Notes under the pieces: model-generated | Database searches by the model: none | The model's input: only the letters and a program-made list of their open reading frames with translations | Told to the model about the DNA's origin: nothing | Source: Allacma fusca | Lineage: Eukaryota > Arthropoda > Collembola > Symphypleona > Sminthuridae | DNA length: 64,000 nucleotides | Direction of reading: 5' to 3' | NCBI GenBank assembly: GCA_947179485.1 | Contig: OX359248.1 | Coordinates: 57,174,386 to 57,238,385, forward strand | Made by a program: the position numbers and the translations under genes | Shown here: positions 19,973 to 28,181 of the stretch, in pieces | How positions within the stretch are numbered: position 1 is the first letter of the stretch | Layout of the letters: the number at the start of each line of letters is the position of its first letter

Positions 19973-19977
19973 CATAC
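19973..19977. repeat. Target-site duplication of the copia insertion, left copy
   Basis: CATAC lies just outside the left LTR and is repeated exactly just outside the right LTR. Five base pairs is the usual duplication made by copia-type integrases. The match sets the LTR edge at 19,978. Confidence 0.9.
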
Positions 19978-20363
19978 TATGATGATTAGTGTCGCACTGT
20001 ATGAAAATGAGTTAAGATGACTGTTGGATACACAGACGGTTAAACAATAAGGTTCAGGTTTAATAACTTTAGAATAAAAAGTAATGACAGTAATAACGTA
20101 TTAACAAGAGAGTGTGAGCACTCAAACTGACAGAGTAACAATCTAGAATCAACTGTATCATTTTGGACGGAGGGCTCAGTTTAAGTACCCAAAGTGAAAG
20201 GTTGTTTGCATGTGATACTGAGGTTCAAAATAGTAAGGTGATGCATTGTCTGTACTTATAAGTCTGACTCATAGGAAGGTTGAGATTGTAAGGTTATACA
20301 AATATTGGGATGTATGAGTCATACTAGATTATTAACCCAGCAGTCATATATATAAACATCACA
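19978..20363 (-). repeat. 3' LTR of the copia element
   Basis: This is the downstream 386-bp LTR, apparently identical to the copy at 27,791-28,176. It follows the purine tract and would supply the polyadenylation site. No AATAAA is seen on the coding strand, but an ATTAAA variant lies near 20,060. The AATAAA-like word near 20,074 is on the other strand. Confidence 0.95.
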
Positions 20364-20372
20364 CTTTCCCTC
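20364..20372 (-). other. Polypurine tract for plus-strand priming
   Basis: The coding strand reads GAGGGAAAG immediately before the 3' LTR, in the expected position for the RNase H-resistant primer of second-strand synthesis. The Env-like frame stops about 30 bases upstream, so there is almost no 3' untranslated sequence. Confidence 0.8.
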
Positions 20373-20401
20373 AATCTCAACCTTAGTGAAAACAAAAATG
20401 A

Positions 20402-21960
20402 TTACGGTGAGATTATACTGCATTTATTTGGCACCACCATATTGTTAGGAGCTGGATGAGCAATGACGGAGAAGGTGGTTTCAGTAGCGGAGTTTTGTCT
20501 TGTGCAGAGTAGATAGATAACAGTCATGAGTAGTGCCACGGCAACTGAGAGGATGACACCGGTTGACCAGTAATAGTGGATGACATGCATAGGCGAAATA
20601 TGTTCTTCCTGGAAGTTGTCAGTGAGGTTCATCTCAAGCATAAGTGATGTCCAGTTTAACTTGGGCTGGAAGTGCCAGTTGGCCTTTATCGTGAATACGG
20701 GGTCTAGTGTCTCTTGATGCGCCAAGCTGATCCTGGATCCTATAAATTCCATGTCGTTGATGGAGAAATTCGTTTTTATAGGAAAGGAGATGACTTCGTT
20801 TGGACATTTTCGCCGGACTCCTTCGATAGTAATGTTGGACTCCGGACAATATACGTAGTATTGGTCATTGTACGGTTTAATTTGGATGAACGCCTGTTCG
20901 TCGTAAGGGTAGTTTTTCTGGCATCGGGTGATGGTGAAGTGCTTTGTGTCGTTACTGACCGCACTTTGCGACATGCAACCTCTGGCCGGGGCGAGAATTA
21001 GTTCGTATTTGATTGGTTGCTTTATATTAATGGAGAATACACAGTGACTACTTTCAGACAGGATGGCATTTTGAGGACCGGTGTATTCAGTAGTGCATGT
21101 ATTATTTCCCTTTCGGACCATTAGTGTGAAGGGATCCGCTTCAATCAGGGTCAAGTCATCGCTTACTAATGGGACTGCAAAATCCATGAAAAGCTTGTTC
21201 CCATCGTCGGATAAGGCACACCTTTGGGCTTTGCTGAGGTGAATAGGGCACTTATCTCCGCAAGGAAGAGTTATATTAAAATAGTCAATAAAGGATGGAT
21301 CTACCTTTCCCAATTTCCACTGTCTATTTGCTTCCCTCAGCATGGCTTTGGCCATAGTGAGTCGACTGACAATATAGGCGATGGCGTAGGTGGTGCTCAC
21401 GAGCTTTCCCTTAAGCTCAGCGTAATCTTTTTGATGGGCTTCGAGACCAATGATTGCGTGGTTGAACTGAGTTGTGAGTTGACGGATGCTGTCGTGATTT
21501 TTCTTGACCTGTGCTTCAACATTGTTGAGCATAGTGTCCTGGAGGGTGGTGTGGTCTTCTACCAGTGATAGTTGTTGAGCGGTGGTAACTGCAATGACGG
21601 TGTCTGTGATTCCAATACCGGCACTTGCAATTATTGCTACTACGACCAGGCAGATGATGAGGTCCAAAAACCGTTTTTGTCGGTGTGATTGGAGCCAGCG
21701 TTTCTTGGGGCACATAAGTTGAAGTTCATTAATAAACATGGCTTGATACGATTCCTGGCATTGTCTTTTGGCTTCGGATGATAGATCCACGTGCACTGTG
21801 TCATTTGTGATTATCTCACAAGGATTGATAAAATCCACCACTAGGTTTACTTGGTAATGTCCTGTGGTTACCGGGTTGTTGCCTTTTCTCCAAAGTACGG
21901 GTGGAGTTCCACTATTAGCTGAAGCAGAAATGATGAACAGAGCAATGAGTCCGAGTACGA
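20402..21960 (-). CDS. Envelope-like class I fusion glycoprotein domain, 3' end of the copia frame
   Basis: About 519 residues, numbered as in the parent frame. Hydrophobic segment 616-630 ending in small residues resembles a signal peptide. RQKR at 709-712 is a furin-type site, followed at once by a hydrophobic, glycine/alanine-containing segment (713-733) like a fusion peptide, then a helical region (about 740-830). NxS/T sequons lie near 668, 844, 901, 952, 991, 1013, 1051 and 1060. Cysteines are frequent between 849 and 1001. A membrane anchor spans about 1081-1100, with a tail of about 34 residues. This is the layout of a class I viral fusion protein and would place it on a membrane or particle surface. 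The homologous family is not recognised, and function is inferred from layout alone. No methionine occurs between residues 533 and 690, so Env needs splicing or polyprotein cleavage. Confidence 0.8.
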
Positions 21961-23806
21961 CTGAGGGTGAGAAGTTACTTACGAGTCGTCTTCCTGTGCT
22001 TTTGACTTGTTTGTCGTCTTCCGCCGAGGGGTGTCGCTGAAGACCCAGTTGGCTCCTGTTTGTTTCGAGCTTTCCCTTAAGTAAGGGTTTCGTCAGACTG
22101 TCAGCCAATTGTATTGCAGTGGGGACATAAGTGACTTCAATGTCTCCCTGGTTGGCTAAATCTCTTATGTAGTGGAATCTTACGTCTATATGTTTTGTCC
22201 TGGTGTGCATCTCAGGGTTCTTTACTAACCTTATAGCACTTTGATTATCCACTCGAATTTTTGTTGGCTGAGTCTGTGGATGTCCTAATTCGTGTAGAAA
22301 GGACCTTAACCAAACTATCTCTCTGGCTGCGGATGCAATTGCGATGTATTCGGCTTCAGTCGATGAGAGCGATACGCATGGTTGTTTTTGTGATGACCAA
22401 CTGATAATAGAATCGTTGAGTTTGATGACCATTCCACTTGTTGATCGTCGTGTGACTTTGTCCCCTGCGTAATCGGAGTCGGTATAGGCTGTCAGACGCA
22501 TGTTTCCTGTTGAGTGGTAAGTGATTCCCATATTGGATGTCCCCTTTAAGTATCTCAAAACCCCTTTTGCTGCAATCCAATGGGATTCGTTGAAGCAGCT
22601 CATGAACTGAGCTAATTTGGAAACGGCAAAGGATATGTCAGGACGGGAGCATTTTGCGAGGAAGATCAGCGACCCAATTAACTGCCGGTATGGAATAGAT
22701 TCGTCACATTCGGTTGCTGGAATCAACTCCGTGTACGGCTGGAGAGGCACGCTACTTGGATTACAGTTTTCCATGTTGAACTTTTGAAGTAGGTTGCTCA
22801 CGTACTGCTTCTGGGTGATTGTGATCGCTCCATTTGTTTCTCTAGATATCTCCAATCCTACATAATTCGTCGGCTGGTGTTTGGTAATTTTGAATCCCTT
22901 TTCAATCCCTTGCATCACCTGTGATAAGGAATTTTCTTTAGTGCACATGATGAGTCCATCATCAACATATAGTACCAGAATGACGAGGTCATCGTTAATA
23001 GTTCCAAGAAAGACGCTTGGATCATATTGGGATTGACGCAGTCCGAGTGTGTCTTCCAAAAATTTTGAAAACTTTTGGTTCCAGCATCGTGGGGATTGTT
23101 TTAGGCCATAAATGCTTTTTAGGAGGCGCAGTACTTTCCCAGATGTGGTGGAATAGCCGGCTGGAATTTTAACGTAAATTTCTTCTTCTAAATCGCCATT
23201 AAGAAATGCTGTGGTAACATCAAATTGTAGGATGTGTAGGTTAAGATGCGCTGCCAGATTTAGTAGAAGGCGAATAGATTCATATCTACTGACTGCAGCG
23301 AATGTCTCGAAGTAGTCAACTCCTTCTTCTTGTAAATATCCTCTAATGACGAGTCTAGCTTTGAACCTGGAAATTGTTCCGTCTGAATGATATTTGAGTT
23401 TAAATACCCATTTGGTGTCTAATAGTTTTGCATTGAGGGGTCGGTCAACGATTTCCCACGAGTTGTTCAATTCTTGGTTTGAAATTTCTTCACTAATTGC
23501 TTTGAGCCATTCGTCCTTTTGAGGTGAGGTGATTGCCTCTTTGTATGTAGCGGGTTCTTGTACTACTGTTGCAGTGAACATGTTGGGGTTTGCATTCTTT
23601 ATCGTTGTACGCGGTCTCAGCCTGGAGTCGAGGATTTGAGGTTGATAGCCGTTGATTGTGGTTTGGAGGTTTTTAGGGATTGCTACTTTTGTGACCTGAC
23701 CTTCTGGAATCGTTGCTACATATTTGCCTTTTGGTGTTGAGATGAGCACATTGTGCATTTTTGGTTGCGGATCCTCGCTTATATGATCGTGTCCCGTGGA
23801 GGTCAA
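20402..23806 (-). CDS. Copia reverse transcriptase and RNase H fused in frame to an Env-like glycoprotein
   Basis: This is the 3' part of the polyprotein, downstream of the LINE. Its apparent start at 23,806 is TTG, a by-product of the insertion and not a real initiator. Residues 93-345 are copia-type RT, with the catalytic YVDD at 280-283. Residues 435-575 are RNase H, with TDSD at 442-445, E484 and D520. There is no stop after RNase H: the frame runs through a polar linker (about 580-615) into the Env-like region (616-1134) and ends with TAA at 20,402. If the LINE and one copy of its target duplication are set aside, this frame is in phase with the Gag-integrase frame, so the element had one uninterrupted gag-pol-env frame. 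I see no stop or frameshift other than the LINE. Confidence 0.93.
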   Translation of the reverse strand: MTSTGHDHISEDPQPKMHNVLISTPKGKYVATIPEGQVTKVAIPKNLQTTINGYQPQILDSRLRPRTTIKNANPNMFTATVVQEPATYKEAITSPQKDEWLKAISEEISNQELNNSWEIVDRPLNAKLLDTKWVFKLKYHSDGTISRFKARLVIRGYLQEEGVDYFETFAAVSRYESIRLLLNLAAHLNLHILQFDVTTAFLNGDLEEEIYVKIPAGYSTTSGKVLRLLKSIYGLKQSPRCWNQKFSKFLEDTLGLRQSQYDPSVFLGTINDDLVILVLYVDDGLIMCTKENSLSQVMQGIEKGFKITKHQPTNYVGLEISRETNGAITITQKQYVSNLLQKFNMENCNPSSVPLQPYTELIPATECDESIPYRQLIGSLIFLAKCSRPDISFAVSKLAQFMSCFNESHWIAAKGVLRYLKGTSNMGITYHSTGNMRLTAYTDSDYAGDKVTRRSTSGMVIKLNDSIISWSSQKQPCVSLSSTEAEYIAIASAAREIVWLRSFLHELGHPQTQPTKIRVDNQSAIRLVKNPEMHTRTKHIDVRFHYIRDLANQGDIEVTYVPTAIQLADSLTKPLLKGKLETNRSQLGLQRHPSAEDDKQVKSTGRRLVSNFSPSVVLGLIALFIISASANSGTPPVLWRKGNNPVTTGHYQVNLVVDFINPCEIITNDTVHVDLSSEAKRQCQESYQAMFINELQLMCPKKRWLQSHRQKRFLDLIICLVVVAIIASAGIGITDTVIAVTTAQQLSLVEDHTTLQDTMLNNVEAQVKKNHDSIRQLTTQFNHAIIGLEAHQKDYAELKGKLVSTTYAIAYIVSRLTMAKAMLREANRQWKLGKVDPSFIDYFNITLPCGDKCPIHLSKAQRCALSDDGNKLFMDFAVPLVSDDLTLIEADPFTLMVRKGNNTCTTEYTGPQNAILSESSHCVFSINIKQPIKYELILAPARGCMSQSAVSNDTKHFTITRCQKNYPYDEQAFIQIKPYNDQYYVYCPESNITIEGVRRKCPNEVISFPIKTNFSINDMEFIGSRISLAHQETLDPVFTIKANWHFQPKLNWTSLMLEMNLTDNFQEEHISPMHVIHYYWSTGVILSVAVALLMTVIYLLCTRQNSATETTFSVIAHPAPNNMVVPNKCSIISP
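21961..21982 (-). promoter_or_regulatory. Candidate splice acceptor (and adjacent donor-like word) at the Pol/Env boundary
   Basis: On the coding strand a pyrimidine-rich stretch ends in CAG at 21,961, one codon before the Env signal-like segment. That is where a subgenomic Env mRNA would need its acceptor. A consensus donor word GTAAGT starts at 21,982, only 22 bases upstream, too close to pair with this acceptor. I found no strong donor in the short leader or at the start of gag, so the splice is a hypothesis. Confidence 0.4.
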
Positions 23807-23817
23807 TTCTTCAGGTC
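23804..23817. repeat. Target-site duplication of the nested LINE, left copy
   Basis: The 14 bases CAATTCTTCAGGTC recur exactly after the LINE tail. Both copies are copia coding sequence, and removing the LINE with one copy keeps the copia frame in phase. Confidence 0.92.
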
Positions 23818-25011
23818 ATCCTAGCATACAGCCCAGGAGATCTGAGGAAGAAAATAGAAATTCTAGAAGACTACTGCCGAATAAATAAGTTACAGGTAAA
23901 TGCGAGTAAAACCAAGATTATGATCTTTGCAAAACATTTACCTAGAATTTTACCAACTTTCTCATTTGAAGGAAAAAAGCTAGACTTGGTAAAGGAGTAT
24001 ACCTATTTAGGAGTCCCATTTCACTCTACAGGGTCATTCCGACTAACAGCAGGTTTTTTCAAAAAAAAAGCAGAAATAGCACAAAACGCAGTCATTAATA
24101 TAATCAACTCCTCTAGATGCAATTCATGGAACTCAATATGTAAATTGTTCGAGTCAATGTGCATGTCTAATCTTTTGTATGCAGCAGGTATATGGGGTTT
24201 GGGACACGAAGCGCTAGTGGAGAGCCTTCAAACTACGTTTTTTAGAAAAATTCTAAGAGTGAGTCCCAAAACTTCAAACCATACCATAAGGTTAGAAGCC
24301 GGACGTTGTAAAATCAGTTGTACAATAATCAAATTATCATTGGCGTATCTATATAAAATCCTGAAAATGGATCGTAGTAGATATCCATATATTACTTTCC
24401 AGAAGCTTGTAATGATCGATTCCAACACTCAGTTCCCCCCAAACTGGAACTGGGTAACAAAGATTAAGGAGAATCTTAACAAATTGGGTTTTCGGGTAAA
24501 GTGGGAAAATATAAATCCTCAGTGGATTGAGATTAACTATAAATCCATACTAGAAGCGGCAGCGGCAGCTTCAGTTATGGACGACGTAGAGAAGGTCATG
24601 TGTTCAAAGCAAAATCCGTTGTATAAATTTATGCTTAGGGGATCAGTGGTTCCAAAATATTTAATGGGGGAGTTATCATTACAAATGGTTAGATTCATGG
24701 CATTTTTACGCCTTGCAAATCCGATTGACTCGAAAATTGAGTTAAGGGGAAATATACTAGAAATAAGCCCAAATAAGCCATGTATACTATGTAACTACTC
24801 GCAACAATCATGGCAACACTTACTTACAGAATGCTCTAAATTAAGTTATTTAAGAATCAAATATAATATTATTAATGAGAATATAGACAACACACGGACA
24901 CATCTAAATATAATATGTGAATCAAATCCGGTTATTTTAAACAGTTTGTACAAATTATGTATAGAAATCGCAACACAAGTATCAAAACATCAAACTGTAT
25001 CACTACGGTAA
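23818..25011 (+). pseudogene. C-terminal part of LINE ORF2 (RT thumb and CCHC zinc finger)
   Basis: About 397 LINE-derived residues. The open frame extends 19 codons further left, to an ATG at 23,761, but those codons are antisense copia sequence and not LINE protein. The remnant starts in the residues that normally follow the RT YADD box, so the catalytic aspartates are missing. The usual thumb signatures follow (NASKTKIMIF at about 47-56, YTYLGVPF at about 80-87). Near the C-terminus C341, C344, H353 and C358 form a zinc-finger-like CCHC. The frame is uninterrupted to TAA at 25,009, which fits a young copy, but the product cannot be an active RT. Confidence 0.88.
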
Positions 25012-25033
25012 AGTATGGAAATCTAATACGGGT

Positions 25034-27724
25034 CTAAATGTATCTATTTACTATTTGTAAATCTTTTGTGTATGAGCCTACTCGCAAACACAATAAAAAT
25101 ATACATACATACAATTCTTCAGGTCTACTTTGTTGGAGGGGAGGTTCAGATCTGGAGGTATTGTTCGACGTTCTAGTCGCTTTAACGCCTGCTTCTTCGT
25201 CTGATGCTTCGTCGTCAGAGCTGAACATCAGATTAGACAGGTTGGGGTCTGCTTCGATGATCCTTCGGGGCGAACCTCGTGTTTGGGATGTTCCTGGGTG
25301 AGTATGATTTCGGGTTACTATTTCTTGCTCATTATTGTCCTGTGGAGCGTCTTGCTCCTCTGGAGAGTATTCAGATTGAACCGTTTCCGTACATATGACT
25401 ACTTGTTTCAAGGATGTCTCTTGAAAGGTGACATTTCTGTCCTCAATAATCTTGTTGCGATGGGCGTCGTATAGTCGGTATTTACGTGTGTTTGGTGCGT
25501 ATCCTACCACGTAGCATTTTTGACCCTTTGGAGACCAGGCAGTTCGGTTTTGTGGGGGCACGTGTTGGAAGGCAGTTGATCCAAATACCCGAATGTGGGC
25601 TAGAGAAGGTTTTATCCCCATTATTGCTTCATATGCAGTTATTTCGGGACTCTGGCTATCCAGTACTCGGTTGTGTATGTAGACTGACGTGCCTACAGCT
25701 TCCGCCCAGAGTGATTCTGGCAATCCTGAGGCTAGTAAAATCGTCCTGGCACAGTCCTTGATTGTACCGATTTCCCGTTCAATTTTGCCATTCGATTCCG
25801 GGCAGTAAGGCGCTGAAGTCTCATAGGAGATTCCATTTTCTCTGAAAAATGTCTTCAGGTTCCGGTTCACAAATTCGGATCCGTTGTCTGTAAAAAATTT
25901 CTTGACTGTCCTGGTTGTTTGATTCTCAATAAATCCGACGAATGCTTTAATGTGTGAGGGTGCTTCTGATTTTTGTTTGAGGAAGTAAACTGCCCTAAAT
26001 CCCGATGCATGGTCCTTAAGAAGGAGGAAATATTTTGATCCACCTAGTGATGGTACAGGCATTGCACCTGAGAGGTCGGCATATATCATTTCTCCCGGTT
26101 TGGAATGGTTTGGTGTAGAACATCTTGGGAACGGTTGTCGTTTGTGTTTTCCTATTTGGCACTCTTCACATCTGTAGTCTTCGGTAACTTCATTTAGAGG
26201 TACACCGGTTACAGCCCCTTTCTTCACGCTGTCCTTAATGTATTTGGGATTTATATGATTGAGTCGATCGTGCCAGAGTTTGGCGAGTCCTTTTGGTGTC
26301 GTGTTTCCAAAGTTTGCCCAAACTGGATTCTCTAGTGGACGAAAGTTCATAACGTATGCCCCACTTTGTAATACCGCTGTTGGTCCTGCACCACCTCCAT
26401 CTTTTAAGTATCTTGTGAGATCTCCCTTTCTAGTAATTGTAAATATCTTTGCCATTTGAATTTCCGAGAAGAGATTCGCTGCTCCTGGGACGTAGAGCAC
26501 GTTTGAGATCGAGACTTCTTCCCATTTGCTGTCGATCAATGCTTCGAGCCTGACTATACCTATGCCCTTGGCCCTGATCTGATCTTGGGTTGCTAGATTG
26601 ATTGTGGGTGCGTTTGTGGTAAACATTTTCATTGATGCAAACCAGCCTATATTGCCGCTGATATGTTCGCTTGCACCTGAGTCACTCACCCAAACTTCTG
26701 ACAGGTGAGATTCTGTTGCTCCAGCAAGTGCATGGAGAGTTCCTTCATATGCTGGTGATTCATTCGAATTTGATTTGGAAAAACCATACCTTGTTTGTGC
26801 GGGTCCCTCAACTGCTGGTACATTGTCTGTGGAGTTTGACGTCTTCACATGAGCCACCCAGGCATGCGCTGAGGTTCCTTTGTTCTGCCTGTGAGCGAGA
26901 TTCGCGTTACTACCTTGATTCCGAGCTGATTGGTTTCCGGGACGCTTGTGTTGCCCATTTTCGAGATCACGTTTCCTGCTTCTGCAATCTCTCTTGAAAT
27001 GACCATCTTTCTCGCAATAAAAACACTTGCCCTTTGGTTTCTGACCTTTTTCGTGGCTCTGTTGAGGCTTCTGTCTCATGTATTCTTTGTTGAAGAGAAA
27101 GGCCTTCGTCTCCACTTGTTGAGATTCCTGTTCGGCATAAGATGAGAATCTTAAATGTTCTTTCTTGAGTCTGGAAAGTAGGACAGTCGGTGTTTGATCC
27201 TTTATTGGTACACTGTCCCATGCTGATTTGAACGGATGGTACTCTCTGGGCAACATTTCAACGACTTTGGTCACAATAACTTCATCATCTACCTTGTGAC
27301 CCATCGACGAGAGAGAGCTTGCTAGACCTTGTATCTGCATCATTGCTTCCACTGGCGACTGTCCTTTTTTCAGTTGGTAGTTTTGAAATTTTGCATAAGT
27401 CAGCTGTCGGTTCATTTCGCTGAAATCCGCGTTGAGTTGCTCCAGTCTGTCAAACATTTCTCTTGAGGTGCTGAGGTCGTAAATTTGATTGCCTTGGTCT
27501 TCATCAACAGAGTTTCCGATGACACTACGCGCTTGGGCGTCCTTCTTTTTCCATTTCTTCAGTTCGGAGACCTTGTCTGCTGCCGGAGCCGGTTCCGTTC
27601 CGTCCACAATTTCTAGTAGATCAGCTGCTTCAAGGACATTCTTGATCTGCCACTTCCACCTCTTGTAATTAGGACCGATGAGCTTGTCAACCGTGTCGAC
27701 TCTGGTGCTAGTGACACTTGCCAT
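25034..27724 (-). CDS. Copia Gag, protease and integrase (5' part of gag-pol, cut by a LINE)
   Basis: The first ATG downstream of the primer site is at 27,724; the open frame extends 12 codons further upstream without an ATG, so I start here. Numbering from 27,760, the order is: Gag domain (about 13-240); CCHC zinc knuckle C246, C249, H254, C259; aspartic protease DSG at 360-362; integrase zinc-binding H497, H502, C531, C534; catalytic D562, D625, E661, which is exact DD35E spacing; then an acidic, variable integrase C-terminus. It would package RNA, cut the polyprotein and insert the cDNA. The frame leaves copia at about residue 883, and the last 25 residues are antisense read-through of the LINE 3' end. 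RT lies beyond the LINE, so this copy should be inactive. Confidence 0.93.
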   Translation of the reverse strand: MASVTSTRVDTVDKLIGPNYKRWKWQIKNVLEAADLLEIVDGTEPAPAADKVSELKKWKKKDAQARSVIGNSVDEDQGNQIYDLSTSREMFDRLEQLNADFSEMNRQLTYAKFQNYQLKKGQSPVEAMMQIQGLASSLSSMGHKVDDEVIVTKVVEMLPREYHPFKSAWDSVPIKDQTPTVLLSRLKKEHLRFSSYAEQESQQVETKAFLFNKEYMRQKPQQSHEKGQKPKGKCFYCEKDGHFKRDCRSRKRDLENGQHKRPGNQSARNQGSNANLAHRQNKGTSAHAWVAHVKTSNSTDNVPAVEGPAQTRYGFSKSNSNESPAYEGTLHALAGATESHLSEVWVSDSGASEHISGNIGWFASMKMFTTNAPTINLATQDQIRAKGIGIVRLEALIDSKWEEVSISNVLYVPGAANLFSEIQMAKIFTITRKGDLTRYLKDGGGAGPTAVLQSGAYVMNFRPLENPVWANFGNTTPKGLAKLWHDRLNHINPKYIKDSVKKGAVTGVPLNEVTEDYRCEECQIGKHKRQPFPRCSTPNHSKPGEMIYADLSGAMPVPSLGGSKYFLLLKDHASGFRAVYFLKQKSEAPSHIKAFVGFIENQTTRTVKKFFTDNGSEFVNRNLKTFFRENGISYETSAPYCPESNGKIEREIGTIKDCARTILLASGLPESLWAEAVGTSVYIHNRVLDSQSPEITAYEAIMGIKPSLAHIRVFGSTAFQHVPPQNRTAWSPKGQKCYVVGYAPNTRKYRLYDAHRNKIIEDRNVTFQETSLKQVVICTETVQSEYSPEEQDAPQDNNEQEIVTRNHTHPGTSQTRGSPRRIIEADPNLSNLMFSSDDEASDEEAGVKATRTSNNTSRSEPPLQQSRPEELYVCIFLLCLRVGSYTKDLQIVNRYI
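25092..25111 (+). terminator. Polyadenylation signal and 3' tail of the nested LINE
   Basis: AATAAA at 25,092-25,097 is followed by a short A-rich and TACA-repeat tail that ends exactly at the target duplication. The tail is a short tandem repeat, not pure poly(A), a feature of some LINE clades. Confidence 0.7.
25112..25125. repeat. Target-site duplication of the nested LINE, right copy
   Basis: Exact match to 23,804-23,817. It directly follows the TACA-rich LINE tail. Confidence 0.92.
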
Positions 27725-27778
27725 TGTTGATACTAAACTTTGACTTCTTTCTGGTTGCACTGTGGATATAACACAAAC

Positions 27779-27790
27779 GCTCTGCTACCA
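27779..27790 (-). other. Primer-binding site for initiator methionine tRNA
   Basis: On the coding strand the 12 bases TGGTAGCAGAGC directly follow the 5' LTR. They are complementary to the 3' end, including CCA, of insect-type initiator methionine tRNA (recalled, not searched). Reverse transcription would start here. Drosophila copia uses an internal part of the same tRNA, so pairing with the 3' end is a small difference. The leader from here to the Gag ATG is only about 66 bases. Confidence 0.85.
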
Positions 27791-28176
27791 TATGATGATT
27801 AGTGTCGCACTGTATGAAAATGAGTTAAGATGACTGTTGGATACACAGACGGTTAAACAATAAGGTTCAGGTTTAATAACTTTAGAATAAAAAGTAATGA
27901 CAGTAATAACGTATTAACAAGAGAGTGTGAGCACTCAAACTGACAGAGTAACAATCTAGAATCAACTGTATCATTTTGGACGGAGGGCTCAGTTTAAGTA
28001 CCCAAAGTGAAAGGTTGTTTGCATGTGATACTGAGGTTCAAAATAGTAAGGTGATGCATTGTCTGTACTTATAAGTCTGACTCATAGGAAGGTTGAGATT
28101 GTAAGGTTATACAAATATTGGGATGTATGAGTCATACTAGATTATTAACCCAGCAGTCATATATATAAACATCACA
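27791..28176 (-). repeat. 5' LTR of the copia element
   Basis: This 386-bp direct repeat is the upstream LTR relative to the minus-strand genes and should carry the promoter. It begins TGTGATG on the coding strand, followed within ten bases by a TATATATA run that is an unproven TATA candidate. Its inner edge abuts the primer-binding site, which fixes that boundary. Its outer edge abuts the CATAC target duplication. No difference from the other LTR was seen on reading. Confidence 0.95.
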
Positions 28177-28181
28177 CATAC
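28177..28181. repeat. Target-site duplication of the copia insertion, right copy
   Basis: CATAC follows the right LTR and matches 19,973-19,977 exactly. Confidence 0.9.

What the first reader, a model, noticed from the sequence alone, without database searches (positions are those of the whole stretch)
20402..23806. Animal Ty1/copia element with an envelope-like glycoprotein fused in frame to Pol
Seen: after RNase H the copia frame continues without a stop for about 520 residues with a signal-like segment, RQKR, a fusion-peptide-like stretch, eight sequons and a C-terminal anchor. Known: Env-bearing LTR elements of animals are mainly Ty3/gypsy and BEL/Pao; among Ty1/copia, Env-like genes are known from plant Sireviruses. 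Inference: a copia lineage here captured an envelope gene and may be, or may have been, an infectious retrovirus-like agent of arthropods.
Basis: partly seen in the sequence, partly recalled or inferred. Interest (0 to 1): 0.92.

Follow-up and report, generated by a model that had tools for sequence, protein, structure and literature searches.

The report
Springtail copia elements carrying viral fusogen
In a springtail genome, a large family of jumping genes of the copia type carries a protein that looks built like the membrane-fusion protein of measles- and RSV-type viruses, which suggests that these elements became retrovirus-like agents on their own.

Summary
The window is on chromosome 4 of the springtail Allacma fusca. 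It contains a young Ty1/copia element (two identical 386-bp LTRs, 5-bp TSD, PBS, PPT), later broken in pol by a LINE fragment. After RNase H the frame runs on for 552 codons to just before the PPT and encodes a signal-like segment, RQKR, fusion-peptide-like stretch, long helix, cysteine-rich ectodomain with eight sequons, and anchor. It is not a one-off: at least 130 of 150 copia RT places listed in this genome have a related Env downstream, and relatives with Env in frame with Pol occur in Folsomia candida, Orchesella dallaii and unnamed metagenomes. Env is under purifying selection (dN/dS 0.06-0.11 in four pairs), its tree largely follows the RT tree, and Env-bearing elements form one RT group in one row set (91/95; not in another). 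An AlphaFold model (pLDDT 63.5) matches only paramyxo-/pneumovirus F in Foldseek's top 50 (best E 2.7e-9). Infectivity is inferred; how Env is expressed is open. The papers searched here describe no Env-bearing animal copia clade.

The parts
27791..28176 (-). 5' LTR, 386 bp
   Evidence: 386 of 386 identical to the 3' LTR
19978..20363 (-). 3' LTR, 386 bp
28177..28181 (.). target-site duplication GTATG, 5' flank
   Evidence: read
19973..19977 (.). target-site duplication GTATG, 3' flank
   Evidence: read
27778..27790 (-). primer binding site TGGTAGCAGAGCG, initiator-Met-tRNA-like
   Evidence: tRNA assignment recalled, not tested
25112..27724 (-). 5' coding piece: gag (Retrotran_gag_2, zinc knuckle just under its cut-off), protease region, integrase (rve, SH3); gag ATG at 27724
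   Evidence: Pfam; open frame 27784..25034
23818..25111 (+). insertion of a non-LTR (LINE) fragment that interrupts pol; flanked by 14-bp TSD copies at 23804-23817 and 25112-25125
   Evidence: (RVT_1 and zf-RVT, both below cut-off)
22061..23817 (-). 3' pol piece: reverse transcriptase (RVT_2, about 23467-22739) and RNase H
   Evidence: RNase H by position, no Pfam row
20402..22060 (-). Env: F-like class I fusion glycoprotein, in frame with pol, TAA at 20404-20402
21905..21988 (-). signal-like hydrophobic segment of Env (residues 25-52)
21671..21682 (-). furin-type site RQKR (Env residues 127-130)
21584..21670 (-). fusion-peptide-like hydrophobic stretch (residues 131-159)
21314..21517 (-). long helix 182-249 (heptad-repeat A position)
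20495..20584 (-). C-terminal membrane anchor (residues 493-522)
20364..20380 (-). polypurine tract directly before the 3' LTR
   Evidence: read; the same GATTGAGGGAAAG follows Env in the L006 family

Best explanation
This is one copy of an old, diversified lineage of Ty1/copia LTR elements of springtails that carries an envelope gene between RNase H and the polypurine tract, in the same frame as pol and, in intact copies, as gag. Shown here: the element anatomy, the conserved Env architecture, purifying selection on Env in the pairs that could be measured, broad agreement of Env and RT trees, and a predicted fold like the F proteins of paramyxo- and pneumoviruses. Inferred: Env is made on the ER from an internal signal segment, cut by furin at R-x-K-R into F2 and F1, forms a class I trimer and fuses membranes, letting copia particles leave the cell enveloped and enter other cells (for example soma to germline, as recalled for errantiviruses of flies). 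The gene was most likely gained once by an ancestor of the group, from a virus with an F-type fusion protein or from another element that already had one. Most likely expression route: a Gag-Pol-Env polyprotein, because the frame stays open across the short, fast-changing spacer in the deep branches sampled; splicing is a live alternative.
Confidence: 0.85

Rival explanations
1. Env is expressed from a spliced subgenomic RNA, as in retroviruses, and the open spacer between RNase H and Env is only a relic of how the gene was added.
For: An acceptor-like AG after a stretch with 67-93% pyrimidines, in the same codon phase and just before the signal core, occurs in 5 of 10 families looked at (window, L006, L025, L031, L040). 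No Met is conserved near the signal in the A. fusca families.
Against: The other 5 of 10 (L027, L029, L033, L038, L065) lack it there, and the coding pattern could by itself give such AGs. By eye, no shared donor near the gag start in the four families looked at. A spacer that is not translated should collect stops, yet 49 of 55 well-covered stop-free Envs stay in long frames.
Confidence: 0.3
2. Env was captured more than once, or passed between copia lineages (the L065-L067 group being the second).
For:: with the long Adiantum row and P0083 kept, L065-L067 fall outside the main Env clade in an unresolved part of the tree; 3 changes needed, at least 2 by starred branches.
Against: Without those two rows all 41 Env rows are one side of a branch (91/95); in the Env tree L065-L067 join the A. 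fusca rows; Envs are homologous at 26-32% identity with the same cysteines and cleavage site.
Confidence: 0.2
3. Env serves no infection between hosts: it is kept for transfer between cells of one animal, or to block other elements.
For: No relative was found in IMG/VR with the patterns scanned; some retrotransposons move between cells even without Env (PMC11952523, listing and start of abstract only).
Against: The whole fusion machinery (cleavage site, hydrophobic stretch, anchor) is conserved, which does not by itself tell transfer within an animal from infection between animals.
Confidence: 0.4
4. The tail is a host gene or an assembly or annotation accident.
For: Pfam finds no viral family in it.
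Against: At least 130 places with the same copia-Env order in a chromosome-level assembly, and the same order in other species.
Confidence: 0.01

Closest known systems
Bdelloid rotifer TelKA LTR elements with paramyxovirus-type F (PMC5408684, passages seen)
   Same: LTR element of a small invertebrate with an ORF3 like class I F: furin-like site, fusion peptide, coiled coil, conserved cysteines, anchor
   Different: TelKA is one of the retrovirus-like rotifer lineages; the passages do not call it copia. Env there was matched to pfam00523 with HHpred E 1.9e-106; here Pfam fails and only the fold matches; Env here is in frame with pol
Errantivirus (gypsy-type, baculovirus-F-like Env)
   Same: LTR element of arthropods with an Env between RNase H and the 3' LTR (recalled)
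   Different: Ty3/gypsy Pol and Baculo_F Env (recalled; origin of Env also in a PMC12440569 passage). Here Pol is copia and Env has no Baculo_F match
BEL/Pao elements with chuvirus glycoprotein, 'Anakin' (PMC12440569, PMC13172572, PMC10084718, passages seen)
   Same: Arthropod LTR element that took a glycoprotein from a negative-strand RNA virus group
   Different: BEL/Pao Pol and a type III glycoprotein; PMC10084718 reports no clear evidence of Jingchuvirales glycoprotein capture by Gypsy or Copia
Plant Sireviruses (SIRE-1)
   Same: Ty1/copia with an env-like ORF after pol
   Different: Plant elements; whether their ORF is an envelope is still unclear (PMC5408684, passage). Here class I architecture is clear and hosts are animals
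Envelope-free copia elements of arthropods and metagenomes (e.g. P0062 Photinus, P0091 Lasius)
   Same: RT-RNase H about 44-50% identical to the query, same domain order
   Different: In rows without a plant name the chain mostly ends 7 to 44 aa after RNase H (exceptions P0036 with a long tail; P0055 and P0110 cut short)

Membership tests
Ty1/copia (Pseudoviridae) | RVT_2-type reverse transcriptase | tested here: met
   E 1.5e-62
Ty1/copia (Pseudoviridae) | integrase upstream of reverse transcriptase; copia-type gag | tested here: met
   Retrotran_gag_2, gag_pre-integrs, rve, SH3 in the 5' piece, RVT_2 in the 3' piece
Ty1/copia (Pseudoviridae) | LTRs, short TSD, PBS, PPT | tested here: met
   PBS tRNA recalled. 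LTRs end TG...TA rather than TG...CA
Retrovirus-like element with Env | env between RNase H and 3' LTR with signal, furin site, fusion peptide, anchor | tested here: met
   by sequence pattern and hydropathy only
Retrovirus-like element with Env | enveloped infectious particles | not testable with these tools
   no particle or infection data
Class I F protein (paramyxo-/pneumovirus) | fold of F | tested here: met
   50 of 50 listed rows are F, and, which re-aligns the same list; model confidence middling, TM-scores low
Class I F protein (paramyxo-/pneumovirus) | Pfam Fusion_gly PF00523 above cut-off | tested here: not met
   so it is F-like by fold and is not filed in the Pfam family
Errantivirus | Ty3/gypsy Pol and Baculo_F Env | tested here: not met
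   copia Pol; no PF12259 row for Env; seven PF12259 places elsewhere in the genome
Plant Sirevirus | RT within the plant Sirevirus group | tested here: inconclusive
   four plant rows group together but were used as root, and no Sirevirus was named among them

The most novel reading that the evidence does not exclude
Springtails host a separate lineage of true retrovirus-like agents built on Ty1/copia, which gained a paramyxovirus-type fusion protein once, long ago, express it as the last part of one Gag-Pol-Env chain of about 1900-2200 residues, and still infect cells today. That would add copia to retroviruses, errantiviruses and Env-bearing BEL elements as an LTR superfamily that became infectious in animals.
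Probability: 0.35. Interest if true: 0.92.

Novelty: new variant of a known kind. Interest (0 to 1): 0.8.

Why it matters
Env capture has been described for gypsy, BEL and rotifer elements; an animal copia clade with a class I fusogen would show that the copia superfamily took the same path. Its spread over two springtail orders' worth of named hosts, its copy number, intact frames and identical LTRs make it a system in which gain of an envelope, its co-descent with Pol and its expression from a single frame can be tested in living animals, including Folsomia candida, a laboratory species (recalled).

Tried and rejected
Baculovirus F / errantivirus Env: rejected for lack of PF12259 matches. 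Host gene: rejected by copy number and context. Sequence-only link to F in the PDB: seen but weak, mixed with coiled coils and GCN4-tagged F constructs, so not used as proof. Relatives in IMG/VR: none with the patterns from P0001 or A1. A shared splice donor near the gag start: not seen by eye in four families. PF00523 over the whole genome: no match, and none in the control genomes either, so uninformative about absence. Other ORFs of 140 aa or more in the window: 5 of 5 without a Pfam match at E 0.01. A count of LTR copies by DNA did not complete. The RT tree used 41 Env rows and 23 (then 21) of 95 Env-lacking rows, chosen by me; P0083 and the long-branch P0051 were dropped.

Full report
WHERE IT IS. 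The window is G000:C12:57174386-57238385. A database protein named Allacma fusca (P0004) is all but identical to one of the copies (L033) in alignment A1.

THE ELEMENT. On the minus strand two LTRs of 386 bp are identical over 386 of 386 bases, flanked by GTATG on both sides; a PBS of initiator-tRNA type (recalled) follows the 5' LTR and a polypurine tract precedes the 3' LTR. Identical LTRs mean a recent insertion; no rate is available here to put it in years. The first coding piece holds copia gag, a zinc knuckle just under its cut-off, pre-integrase and integrase domains, the second RVT_2 and, by position, RNase H. Between them lies a LINE fragment with a 14-bp TSD, so this copy is broken in pol. 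The pieces were kept apart.

THE TAIL. From RNase H the frame continues 552 codons. It has a signal-like segment, R-Q-K-R, a hydrophobic stretch of fusion-peptide type, a long helix, a cysteine-rich part and an anchor; eight of ten sequons are in the ectodomain. In a 21-row alignment R-x-K-R is kept in 19 of the 20 rows with residues there, and twelve ectodomain cysteines are invariant or kept in all rows but one.

NOT A SINGLE COPY. The first two merge into 139 places. Of the 150 RVT_2 places scored (of 221 candidates), 124 have an Env match within 3 kb downstream on the same strand; one search adds five (distances checked) and reading L068 one more, so at least 130 of 150. The other 20 were not examined. 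Of the 55 Env matches that are stop-free and cover at least 440 aa, 49 lie in frames of 900 aa or more and 33 in frames of 1900 or more; in such copies gag, pol and env are one frame.

OTHER SPECIES. Protein searches found Env in A. fusca, Folsomia candida (including one named 'Copia protein', 1883 aa), Orchesella dallaii and unnamed metagenomes. With a profile from A1, 27 of the 123 proteins P0007-P0129 have Env; eight of these came from an Env query, so by construction. Among named sources Env is in springtails alone and not in Photinus, Lasius, Cordylochernes or the plants listed. One search listed 120 of 7865 matches, so this is a view of the nearest relatives only. In rows without a plant name the Env-lacking chains mostly end 7 to 44 aa after RNase H; several plant gene models and P0036 have long unrelated tails.

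DESCENT. An RT-RNase H tree of 64 rows puts 38 of 41 Env rows, plus one Env-lacking row (P0083, 887 aa), in a clade of 99/97; the other three (L065-L067) fall in an unresolved part, so the label needs three changes. Without the long-branch fern row and P0083, all 41 Env rows are one side of a branch (91/95; 93% of 200 bootstrap trees), which is support short of the tool's star. For 34 elements the RT and Env trees agree well (r = 0.743, 0 of 999 permutations; 16 of 31 splits shared; nine strong splits in common; three strong conflicts, all with one RT split). This fits one gain and long joint descent, without proving it.

SELECTION. For the four Env pairs with enough silent change, dN/dS is 0.060, 0.107, 0.073 and 0.091; RT of one pair gives 0.033. 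Pairs of near-identical copies gave 0.14, 0.84 and 2.02 on very few changes, two pairs had no silent change, and distant pairs are saturated.

EXPRESSION. A. fusca families have no Met conserved near the signal segment, while 18 of 26 database relatives have a Met at the extrapolated end of RNase H (counted). Acceptor-like sites in the same phase just before the signal core occur in 5 of 10 families and are missing in the other 5; donors near gag, read by eye in four families, are not shared. The open spacer favours a polyprotein; this is inference, and database relatives were largely found because they are single chains.

LITERATURE. Ten paper searches were run. Springtail + copia + envelope: 0 papers; copia + env + Collembola: 0. 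The closest are the rotifer TelKA elements (PMC5408684, passages), BEL elements with chuvirus glycoprotein (PMC13172572 and PMC12440569, passages) and a survey that saw no clear evidence of Jingchuvirales glycoprotein capture by Gypsy or Copia (PMC10084718, one passage). A review says few members of these families have an env-like gene (PMC11599104, passages). Subscription papers, most preprints and repeat databases are not covered, so 'not in print' holds only for these searches.

VERDICT. It is a real, large and diverse clade of copia elements, with recent copies, that carries an F-like class I envelope protein; that it infects is not shown.

Noticed in passing
window 23818-25111 (+): Non-LTR retrotransposon fragment inserted in the copia pol, with 14-bp TSD CAATTCTTCAGGTC.
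   Followed up: partly
G000: C10:16909325, C12:4965495, C12:11545466, C12:34203972, C12:1994270, C10:2254240, C12:27907738: Seven Baculo_F (PF12259) places in the same genome, none at a listed copia Env: a second, different envelope-type family, perhaps gypsy-type elements or a host gene.
   Followed up: no
G000: C1 22.5-23.1 Mb and C8 50.5-51.4 Mb: Copies of the L006 family with nearly identical Env cluster in two regions, which hints at local amplification.
   Followed up: no
G000, 2146-aa family (e.g. L067): Twenty-five copies with 99-100% identical Env in frames of 2144-2147 aa, spread over the six large contigs: a recent burst.
   Followed up: no
15 Env places listed: Env matches without a listed RVT_2 place within 3 kb upstream; ten hold stops and five do not. 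A host-adopted Env gene among them was not ruled out.
   Followed up: no
window 28176-27791 and 20363-19978: LTRs end TG...TA instead of the usual TG...CA if the TSD is GTATG.
   Followed up: partly
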